Source: an uncultured Synechococcus sp. (GTDB lineage Bacteria; Cyanobacteriota; Cyanobacteriia; PCC-6307; Cyanobiaceae). From it: 64,000 nt of DNA. The notes under the pieces are model-generated. The model searched no databases. It had not been told where the DNA came from and was given only the letters and a program-made list of their open reading frames with translations. This document shows positions 12,416 through 19,696 of the stretch, piece by piece (within the stretch, counting starts at the first letter, position 1; every line of letters begins with the position of its first letter). The position numbers were made by a program, and so were the translations under genes. The stretch is taken from positions 124,001 through 188,000 of the forward strand of contig CAJWYF010000001.1 of assembly GCA_913049535.1 (NCBI GenBank), read 5' to 3'.

Positions 12416-13389
12416 GTGGCCGAAACCCTTCTGTTCAACGCCCTGCGCGAAGCCATCGATGAAGAGATGGCCCGCGATCCCCACGTCTGTGTGATGGGGG
12501 AGGACGTCGGCCATTACGGCGGGTCCTACAAAGTCACCAAAGACCTCTACGAGAAATACGGCGAGCTGAGGGTGCTGGACACCCCCATCGCTGAAAACAG
12601 CTTCACCGGCATGGCGGTCGGCGCAGCGATGACCGGCCTGAGGCCGATTGTCGAAGGCATGAACATGGGCTTCCTGCTCCTGGCCTTCAATCAGATCTCC
12701 AACAACATGGGCATGCTGCGCTACACCAGCGGCGGCAACTTCACCATTCCCACGGTGGTGCGTGGCCCCGGTGGGGTGGGGCGGCAGCTCGGTGCTGAGC
12801 ACAGCCAGCGGCTTGAGGCTTATTTCCATGCTGTCCCCGGCATCAAGATCGTCGCCTGTAGCACGCCCACCAATGCCAAGGGGCTGATGAAGGCCGCCAT
12901 TCGTGACAACAACCCGGTGCTCTTTTTCGAGCACGTTCTGCTCTACAACCTCAGCGAGGAGCTTCCCGCTGGCGATTACACCTTCGCCCTCGATAAGGCC
13001 GAGATGGTGCGCCAGGGCAAGGACATCACCCTGCTCACTTACTCGCGGATGCGTCACCACTGCCAGGTGGCCGTCAAGCAGCTCGAGGAGCAGGGCTATG
13101 ACCCCGAGCTGATCGATCTGATCAGCCTCAAGCCGTTCGACATCGAAGCGATCAAGCGATCGATCGCCAAGACTCACCGGGTGGTGATTGTCGAGGAGTG
13201 CATGAAGACCGGCGGTATTGGGGCCGAGTTGATTGCCCTGATCACCGAGCACTGCTTCGACGAGCTCGATGCACCACCGGTGCGCCTCTCCAGCCAGGAC
13301 ATCCCCACGCCTTACAACGGCAAGCTGGAAAACCTCACCATCATTCAGCCCCATCAGATCGTTGAAGCCGTTCAGCAGCTGGTGCAGCG

Positions 13390-18057: not shown

Positions 18058-18253
18058 GGCAAAAAAAATCGCCCCCCGCCGGAGACGATCAACTCATTCT
18101 TCCTTTTCAACTTAGCGGGAGGAAAATCATTGTCACCCCCTTCTGCCTCAGCTCTGCGGCTTCAAGGACCAACGATTCATCTCCTGGCCGTGTCGTGCTG
18201 CGCTACTGCTCCCACCTAAGTCAGCTTTGAGGATGCCAATCAGGCTGAGCATG
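18058..18253. other. intergenic region without a supported gene
   Basis: Downstream of the HTH gene there is an A8 run followed by C-rich sequence (18061-18080) but no proper terminator stem for the plus strand. A 34-codon minus-strand ATG frame lies here but lacks a ribosome site and starts downstream of the peptide gene's terminator. I see nothing else. Confidence 0.5.
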
Positions 18254-18275
18254 AAAAAGCCCCCTTGGCGGGGCT
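18254..18275 (-). terminator. rho-independent terminator of the double-glycine peptide gene
   Basis: Read on the minus strand, AGCCCC-GCCAA-GGGGGCT is followed by TTTTTC: a GC stem of 6 pairs, a short loop and a T-run, 23 bases after the stop of the peptide gene at 18299. This strongly suggests a monocistronic transcript. Confidence 0.8.
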
Positions 18276-18298
18276 CCATTGCTCCTGATTGTTGGCGC

Positions 18299-18493
18299 TC
18301 ATCCCATGGTGGACACGGTGGTGGAAGCCAGGAGGGACTGAAGCCCGTGGTCTGCGTGGTCAGTCTTCTGCTCAGCTAAGTGCTGCAGTTCAGTGTCACG
18401 GATCTTTGCGGTGTAGTGGGGGAAATGTCCACCAGCTGCACCCAGCAGCTCTTCATCAGTCACGGCTTTCAGTTCAAGCGTTTGAGTCGTCAT
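18299..18493 (-). CDS. double-glycine leader peptide (bacteriocin/RiPP-like precursor)
   Basis: The 64-aa product begins MTTQTLELKAVTDEELLGAAGG. Residues 1-22 form a short leader with the double-glycine consensus: Glu at -8, Leu at -7, small or hydrophobic residues at -4, and Gly-Gly at -2/-1. Leaders of this kind are cut by C39-peptidase ABC exporters. The 42-residue remainder starts HFPHYTAKIRD and has five His and no Cys, so it is not a lanthipeptide or prochlorosin-type core. ATG 18493 has an excellent ribosome site, AAGGAG with 8-base spacing, and a terminator follows. No exporter or modifying enzyme lies nearby. It could be an unmodified class II bacteriocin-like peptide or a secreted signal; function is unknown. 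Confidence 0.75.
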   Translation of the reverse strand: MTTQTLELKAVTDEELLGAAGGHFPHYTAKIRDTELQHLAEQKTDHADHGLQSLLASTTVSTMG

Positions 18494-18673
18494 TTCTCCA
18501 GCTCCTTCAAAAGATTTGAGTGGTGTCTCTTGAGGCCTCCCCCTTCGACTTCTTTGGTCTATTCCCAGGGAATGGCTTCGCTCGATACCTGAAACCGCCC
18601 CATCAGGTTCGGTTCTGCGAACCCATGCCAGGGCAAGTCACCCAAAAGCACTGAGGACCGGCGTTTGCGTGAT

Positions 18674-19696
18674 TCAGAGAGTCCAGCGGTCCATGATCTC
18701 CCTGACGAAAACCTCCTGCAGCAGCACCTGCAGCACCACCACAAAGGGAAGTGCCAGCAGCACACCCGGCAGCCCGAGTAGGGCTCCCAGGCTGAGCTGA
18801 GACATCAGGGCCACGGTGGGCAACAGGTTGACCGTGCGGGCCAGCAGCAGTGGAGTCAGCACAAACGCTTCCAGGTTCTGCAGCACCAGCCGCAGAATCA
18901 CCACCTTCAAGGCCAGCAGGGGAGAGACAACCAACGCCAGCGCCGTGGGCAGAAGTGTCGCCACGGTGGGGCCGATGGTGGGGACAAACGTCAGCAGTCC
19001 GCAGACCAGACCACTGAGCAGGGCCAGGGGCACCTGCAGCCAGGCCAGCCCAGCCCAAGTGAGCAGAAAGACACTCACCGCGGAGATGGTCATCCCTGCG
19101 AGCCAGCCGCCTAAAGCCTCGCGGCACTCGGCAATCAAACGACGGCTGTGCTGCCTGTAGAAATTGGGCGTCGCTGCGATCAACAGATTGGCGTGACTGG
19201 TGGGATCCAGGCACAGCAGCAGGGCCAGCAGGGCCATCAGCAGCACCTGGATGGAGGAATTGGCCGCACCACCGGCCAAGCCCAGCAACTGACCGCTGAC
19301 GGGTTTGAGTGCCGACAAAACACTGCCCGAGCCCAGGCCTTGAGCCAGCTGCTCCAGGCCCCTCACCTCCCCAAGCACGGCTGCAATGCGCTGCAGCAGC
19401 TGGGGCAGCAACGCATTGAGGGTCTGGATCTGCTGCACCAATTCGGGTAGCAACAGGGTTCCCATCACCCAGGCCAGCAGCACCAAGGCCAGCACCACCA
19501 GCATCAGGGCCTGGGGGCGCTGCAGTGGGGATCGGCGCTGCAACAGCTGCACCGGCACATCGAGGGCCACCGCCAGGACCACGGCCCCAAAGAGCACCAG
19601 CAGCACCCAGCGCAGTTCCCAGGCCAGCACCCCCAGCAGCACCAGAGTTATGCTGCCGAGCACGGCCGGCCAGCTGATCACGCTGCTGGATCTCAT
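18674..19696 (-). CDS. AI-2E family transporter (UPF0118 permease), copy 2
   Basis: The 340-aa protein has about eight membrane helices and the family hallmarks near the C-terminus: LTFVPTIGPTVATLLPTAL, VVILRLVLQNLEAFVLTPLLL and LGLPGVLLALPFVVVLQVLLQ. Members are thought to export small molecules or exchange ions; the substrate is unknown here and the family name does not prove AI-2 transport. It overlaps the preceding paralogue by 4 bases (ATGA), so the pair is translationally coupled and may form a heteromeric complex. Confidence 0.85.
   Translation of the reverse strand: MRSSSVISWPAVLGSITLVLLGVLAWELRWVLLVLFGAVVLAVALDVPVQLLQRRSPLQRPQALMLVVLALVLLAWVMGTLLLPELVQQIQTLNALLPQLLQRIAAVLGEVRGLEQLAQGLGSGSVLSALKPVSGQLLGLAGGAANSSIQVLLMALLALLLCLDPTSHANLLIAATPNFYRQHSRRLIAECREALGGWLAGMTISAVSVFLLTWAGLAWLQVPLALLSGLVCGLLTFVPTIGPTVATLLPTALALVVSPLLALKVVILRLVLQNLEAFVLTPLLLARTVNLLPTVALMSQLSLGALLGLPGVLLALPFVVVLQVLLQEVFVREIMDRWTL

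What the first reader, a model, noticed from the sequence alone, without database searches (positions are those of the whole stretch)
18299..18493. Orphan, Cys-free double-glycine leader peptide with its own ribosome site and terminator
The 64-codon gene has a textbook double-glycine leader (Glu -8, Leu -7, Gly-Gly -2/-1), AAGGAG at ideal spacing and a rho-independent terminator, so it is very likely expressed. The 42-residue core has no Cys or paired hydrophobic blocks but five His. It does not fit prochlorosins or usual Nif11-leader RiPPs. No C39 exporter or modifying enzyme is in the window, so it must use a distant exporter. It sits in the loosest part of the window, between gaps, as expected for a recently gained gene.
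Basis: partly seen in the sequence, partly recalled or inferred. Interest (0 to 1): 0.68.

Follow-up and report, generated by a model that had tools for sequence, protein, structure and literature searches.

The report
Secreted-peptide gene from a cassette family
A tiny gene in a marine Synechococcus-type genome encodes a probable exported peptide with a cut-here leader; it is not a lone orphan but one copy of a previously unnamed, genus-limited family of small gene cassettes that share the same upstream DNA and leader while the mature peptide varies almost freely.

Summary
ORF 18299-18493(-) encodes MTTQTLELKAVTDEELLGAAGG|HFPHYTAK..., 64 codons, with AAGGAG 8 nt before ATG and a terminator-like hairpin after the stop. 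It is the only one of 668 ATG ORFs (30-120 aa) in the window with such a leader.

It is not an orphan in its genus. Two same-genus Synechococcus MAGs carry 10 and 3 paralogs in tandem clusters. They share the leader (MTTQxxELQAVTDEELxxxxGG) and a 129-nt untranslated 5' block. Cores vary to shuffled-level similarity, fall into at least three recurring types, and 13 of 14 lack Cys. No Pfam, NCBIfam or Rfam family covers peptide or block; the block was found complete only in these three genomes.

In one relative the cluster directly follows an NHLM-ABC2-like exporter gene cut by a contig end; its homologs elsewhere sit in HlyD / C39-ABC1 / ABC2 cassettes. The window's own assembly (90.7% complete) has one C39-like exporter, without the catalytic Cys, so the exporter there is unidentified. 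Relatives lack the ~0.5-kb insert at this site, which supports recent gain.

Most likely: a C39-exported, probably unmodified peptide, bacteriocin- or signal-like; export and function are inferred.

The parts
18299..18493 (-). precursor gene, 64 aa: leader residues 1-22 (MTTQTLELKAVTDEELLGAAGG), core residues 23-64
18428..18493 (-). conserved leader codons 1-22 ending in Gly-Gly
   Evidence: invariant M1, E14, G21, G22 in 14 family members
18302..18349 (-). conserved C-terminal core module HGLQSLLASTTVSTMG, shared with relatives in L022 and L024; shorter versions in L023 and other L024 genes
18502..18507 (-). Shine-Dalgarno AAGGAG, 8 nt before ATG
   Evidence: read
18494..18622 (-). conserved 129-nt untranslated 5' block, 81-91% identical to seven family operon heads; more conserved than the leader
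18254..18275 (-). terminator-like hairpin and T run
18230..18653 (-). extent of DNA similarity to family cassettes in related genomes (18230-18622 colinear with L024:6456-6838, 77% identity)
18181..18680 (.). ~500-bp segment absent at the same site in relatives G001 and G003 (and G002); approximate boundaries

Best explanation
The gene is one member of a genus-restricted family of secreted double-glycine peptides. It moves and duplicates as a self-contained cassette: conserved 5' block, RBS, precursor, terminator. Shown by sequence: the leader, the family, the variable and mostly Cys-free cores, the conserved 5' block and the empty site in relatives. Inferred: the leader is recognised by a C39 peptidase-transporter of the NHLM type (HlyD + C39-ABC1 + ABC2), cut after Gly22, and the unmodified 42-residue core is released outside the cell, where it acts against or signals to close relatives. 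In this genome the exporter is either in the unassembled part, or lost, or replaced by another exporter.
For: Leader with E(-9), L(-7) and GG invariant or nearly so in 14 members. Family in three same-genus genomes, in tandem units with own RBS. Coding signature: third positions vary most in leaders (0.20/0.14/0.33) and in the shared C-terminal module (0.04/0.04/0.19). Same core types recur in two genomes (22b/24c, 22a/24e, and the window type). In G001 the first block and gene of the cluster start 141 and 269 nt after an ABC gene scoring best to NHLM_micro_ABC2 (461 bits). That gene's four closest homologs (41-43%) lie in HlyD - C39-ABC1 (with ECGAASL) - ABC2 cassettes, and one of those (L130) has GG-leader ORFs just downstream. 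13 of 14 cores lack Cys.
Against: No C39 peptidase with a catalytic Cys was found in any of six same-genus genomes, including the one 99% complete genome, which however has no precursors either. The G001 ABC2-like gene is below its family cut-off (461 vs 709 bits), starts at a contig end, and its C39 partner is not in the assembly. The window's genome lacks even the ABC2-like gene. No expression, cleavage or activity data.
Confidence: 0.6

Rival explanations
1. The peptide is exported by the genome's long-type exporter (SurA/PpiC - ABC with cNMP-like and C39-like domains - HlyD on contig C20), whose C39-like domain lacks the catalytic Cys. It would leave uncleaved, or be cleaved by another protease.
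For: This three-gene set is the only C39-domain exporter found in the assembly and matches 'group I' bacteriocin clusters of Wang et al. 2011 (PMC3140520). HlyB, its best solved relative, works with an inactive C39-like domain (own knowledge).
Against: The same exporter is present in genus member G002, which has no precursors, so it probably has another job. The catalytic Cys position is not Cys in 5 of 5 genus members and in the six other long types aligned. In S. elongatus the PteB Cys is required for efficient GG-peptide secretion (PMC4997328).
Confidence: 0.15
2. The window copy is a recently transposed cassette without its exporter in this genome: transcribed perhaps, but non-functional or on its way to decay.
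For: Only copy in the assembly; inserted where relatives have none; no competent C39 and no ABC2-like gene found.
Against: Frame, RBS, leader, C-terminal module and terminator are all intact although the cassette is only 77% identical in DNA to its nearest relative, which a dead copy would not be expected to keep. Assembly is only 90.7% complete.
Confidence: 0.2
3. The conserved 5' block is the functional and mobile unit (regulatory RNA or DNA repeat) and the peptide is a passenger.
For: The block (87% mean pairwise identity) is more conserved than the leader (76%), leader third positions (64%) and core (48%, equal to shuffled). Related short palindromes occur in L104 without a gene.
Against: Every complete block found stands directly before a precursor ORF. 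No RNA structure support: fold z -0.5, almost no covariation. Leaders are conserved as protein.
Confidence: 0.05

Closest known systems
EbfG1-4 / PteB of Synechococcus elongatus (PMC4997328)
   Same: Small cyanobacterial proteins with a GG secretion motif, several per genome, co-transcribed; no modifying enzyme is needed in that model
   Different: EbfG secretion depends on PteB, which has a catalytic C39 Cys; no sequence comparison with EbfG was made here; the present family shares a 5' block and has near-random cores
Prochlorosins / Nif11-leader lanthipeptides
   Same: One conserved leader, many variable cores, scattered precursors in picocyanobacteria
   Different: No Nif11 leader match, leader of 22 residues only, 13 of 14 cores without Cys, so no lanthionine rings possible in those
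NHLM/NHLP export clusters (groups IV/V of Wang et al. 2011, PMC3140520)
   Same: ABC2-like exporter next to the precursor cluster in relative G001
   Different: No profile match of the leader to NHLP or Nif11; C39-ABC1 and HlyD not seen because the contig ends; absent from the window's assembly
CCRG-2 family RiPP (NF033456)
   Same: Weak leader resemblance in 3 of 14 members (best E 0.086)
   Different: Not significant; not a member by this test

Membership tests
C39-processed double-glycine precursor peptides | Leader ending in GG with Glu(-8) and Leu(-7), hydrophobic -12 | tested here: met
   Window: V(-12), E(-8), L(-7), GG; 14-member alignment; consensus from PMC6363468
C39-processed double-glycine precursor peptides | Cognate exporter with catalytic C39 Cys in the genome | tested here: not met
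   Own assembly: one C39-like domain, Cys replaced. Assembly 90.7% complete, so absence is not proven; membership of a C39-dependent system is therefore not claimed for this genome
C39-processed double-glycine precursor peptides | Cleavage after GG and secretion of the core | not testable with these tools
   Needs peptidomics
Prochlorosin / Nif11-leader RiPP | Nif11-type leader | tested here: not met
   No Pfam or NCBIfam match up to E 10 for the window peptide; no Nif11 match in 14 members
Prochlorosin / Nif11-leader RiPP | Cys in core for lanthionine rings | tested here: not met
   0 Cys in window core; 13 of 14 cores Cys-free
Prochlorosin / Nif11-leader RiPP | LanM (ProcM) in genome | not tested
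   Genome search not spent on LanM
NHLM export system (in relative G001) | ABC2 subunit | tested here: inconclusive
   Best NCBIfam hit TIGR03797, 461 bits vs cut-off 709; homologs in complete cassettes score the same (462-468)
NHLM export system (in relative G001) | C39-ABC1 and HlyD next to ABC2 | tested here: inconclusive
   Contig starts at the ABC2-like gene; no canonical C39 elsewhere in G001
CCRG-2 family RiPP (NF033456) | Significant match to the family model | tested here: not met
   3 of 14 members, best E 0.086
Known structured RNA (for the 5' block) | Match to an Rfam 15 family | tested here: not met
   No relevant match at gathering or E up to 10

The most novel reading that the evidence does not exclude
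A genus-restricted system of mobile peptide cassettes: a shared, strongly conserved untranslated block and leader act as an interchangeable expression-and-export module onto which near-freely diversifying, mostly Cys-free cores are attached, and which inserts singly at new chromosomal sites, giving strains different repertoires of secreted unmodified peptides.
Probability: 0.3. Interest if true: 0.7.

Novelty: new variant of a known kind. Interest (0 to 1): 0.5.

Why it matters
Picocyanobacterial secreted peptides are known mostly as lanthipeptides of unknown function. A Cys-poor family with the same conserved-leader, variable-core plan would show that diversification of secreted peptides does not depend on a promiscuous modifying enzyme. 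The conserved 5' block gives a handle to find such cassettes and to study how they are regulated and relocated.

Tried and rejected
Structured RNA in the 5' block: fold z -0.5, consensus fold with little covariation (3 of 31 pairs with any two-sided change), no Rfam match; not claimed. Wider distribution of the block: DNA search of 300 and sequence-model search of 400 family genomes gave complete copies only in the genus trio; four weak matches outside the trio (E 0.0006-0.009) are about what 400 searches at E 0.01 give by chance. Wider distribution of the precursor: weak leader-only matches outside the genus (E 6e-6 to 0.01), some real-looking GG-leader ORFs with unrelated cores. Phage carriage: no match in viral contigs or phage records. 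Second own-genome copy: one weak match on C2, no leader ORF there. Structure prediction: mean pLDDT 59, pTM 0.19, not used. Target-site duplication at the insertion: GATTCA occurs near both ends but is not seen in the relatives' site; not claimed.

Full report
Observation. The ORF 18299-18493 on the minus strand is 64 codons with an ATG start. The minus strand reads ...TTTTGAAGGAGCTGGAGAAATGACG..., so AAGGAG stands 8 nt before ATG. The leader MTTQTLELKAVTDEELLGAAGG has Val(-12), Glu(-8), Leu(-7) and Gly-Gly, close to the published C39 recognition consensus (PMC6363468). The core has 42 residues, five His, no Cys. A hairpin AGCCCC-GCCAAG-GGGGCT followed by TTTT lies at 18275-18254. It folds and recurs after related genes, although the pattern scanner missed it. 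Of 668 ATG ORFs of 30-120 aa in the window, only this one has the leader pattern.

It belongs to a family. In the window's genome it is the only copy found. Two of five other same-genus genomes carry relatives: G001 (record title Synechococcus sp. TMED19, loci L023, L024) with ten, and G003 (uncultured Synechococcus MAG, L022) with three. In the 14-row alignment M1, E14, G21 and G22 are invariant and T2, Q4, E7, T12, D13 and L16 nearly so. Leaders differ most at third codon positions (0.20/0.14/0.33 for positions 1/2/3). The C-terminal module HGLQSLLASTTVxTMG, shared with L022 and L024 genes, shows the same (0.04/0.04/0.19). Core types recur between G001 and G003. The genes therefore look translated and kept by selection; expression itself was not tested.

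The plan is conserved head, free tail. Across eight operon heads, mean pairwise identity is 87% for the 129-nt untranslated block before the gene, 76% for the leader, 64% for leader third positions and 48% for cores, the last equal to shuffled cores (47.5%). The block is thus more conserved than neighbouring synonymous sites, which recent duplication or gene conversion alone would not readily give. I infer a regulatory role. There is no support for a conserved RNA fold, and Rfam has no match. Complete blocks were found only in the three genomes with precursors, each before a precursor. Truncated copies lie at contig ends in G001:C32 and G003:C48, a sign that the repeats break assemblies.

It was gained at this site. 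The window flanks align to G001 and G003 up to 18180 and again from 18681 (76-77% and 79-80% identity), and the ~500 bp between is missing there; G002 lacks it too. Window 18230-18622 (block, gene, terminator and some DNA beyond) aligns colinearly with G001:C12:6456-6838 at 77%, a different locus. The cassette has therefore moved, or been copied, as a unit. How is unknown; no clear target-site duplication was seen.

Exporter. In G001 the cluster follows an ABC gene cut by the contig start (L024:5-2155) whose best NCBIfam model is NHLM_micro_ABC2 (461 bits, below the 709 cut-off). Its four closest homologs among 251 family genomes (41-43%) all lie third in HlyD - C39-ABC1 - ABC2 sets with an intact ECGAASL motif, and the two ABC2s tested score about the same against the model. 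One set (L130) is followed by GG-leader ORFs. In the window's assembly the only C39-like exporter is the long type on contig C20 with SurA/PpiC and HlyD, 'group I' of Wang et al. (PMC3140520). Aligned with intact C39 domains, its catalytic Cys position is not Cys, in 5 of 5 genus members and in the six other long types aligned. In S. elongatus the corresponding Cys of PteB is needed for efficient GG-peptide secretion (PMC4997328). No canonical C39 was found in any of the six same-genus genomes. The assembly is 90.7% complete and precursor clusters sit at contig ends, so the missing exporter may be a gap, but this is not shown.

Interpretation. Most likely the gene encodes a secreted, probably unmodified, bacteriocin- or signal-like peptide of a genus-limited family, exported by an NHLM-type system where that system is present. 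Works-like: double-glycine peptides such as EbfG. Member-of: no Pfam or NCBIfam family fits, Nif11/prochlorosin features fail, and the C39 exporter requirement is not met in this assembly. Rivals are export by the Cys-less long-type exporter, a stranded cassette without exporter, and a mobile 5' block with a passenger peptide.

The observation and the recent-gain guess stand; 'orphan' does not hold within the genus; the exporter claim is open.

Noticed in passing
window 18494-18622 (-); L022, L023, L024: 129-nt untranslated block more conserved than the adjacent coding leader, no Rfam match, no fold support
   Followed up: yes
L104:11386-11426 and 12724-12753 (G003:C48): Short palindrome GGCTTCGCAGAACCGACCCATCAGGTTCGGCTCTGCGAAGCC related to the first 40 nt of the block, without a precursor; may be a dispersed repeat from which the block derives
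   Followed up: partly
L144 around 1545 (-) (G244:C1): Weak block-like match (ATAGACCAAAGAGGTCGA) just before an ORF that resembles a cyanobacterial metallothionein (by eye); E 0.009, compatible with chance
   Followed up: no
L141 around 1500-1592 (G002:C1:1306023): Weak block-like match (AAACCGAACC...GGATCGGTTT) before a 32-aa ORF in the otherwise precursor-free G002; E 6e-4
   Followed up: no
G000:C20 (L026:7400-12312): Long-type exporter with degenerate C39 domain, found across the genus and in other picocyanobacteria sampled, although Wang et al. class such exporters as C39-peptidase transporters
   Followed up: partly
L056, L064, L068 (G282, G191; genus g57): Another GG-leader family, MTTQ(T/A)FDAQ(T/N)I(K/N)EDDLEAVQGG, with different cores, in other picocyanobacteria
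   Followed up: no
L130:8083-8659 (-): GG-leader ORFs next to a complete HlyD/C39-ABC1/ABC2 set in genome G187
   Followed up: partly
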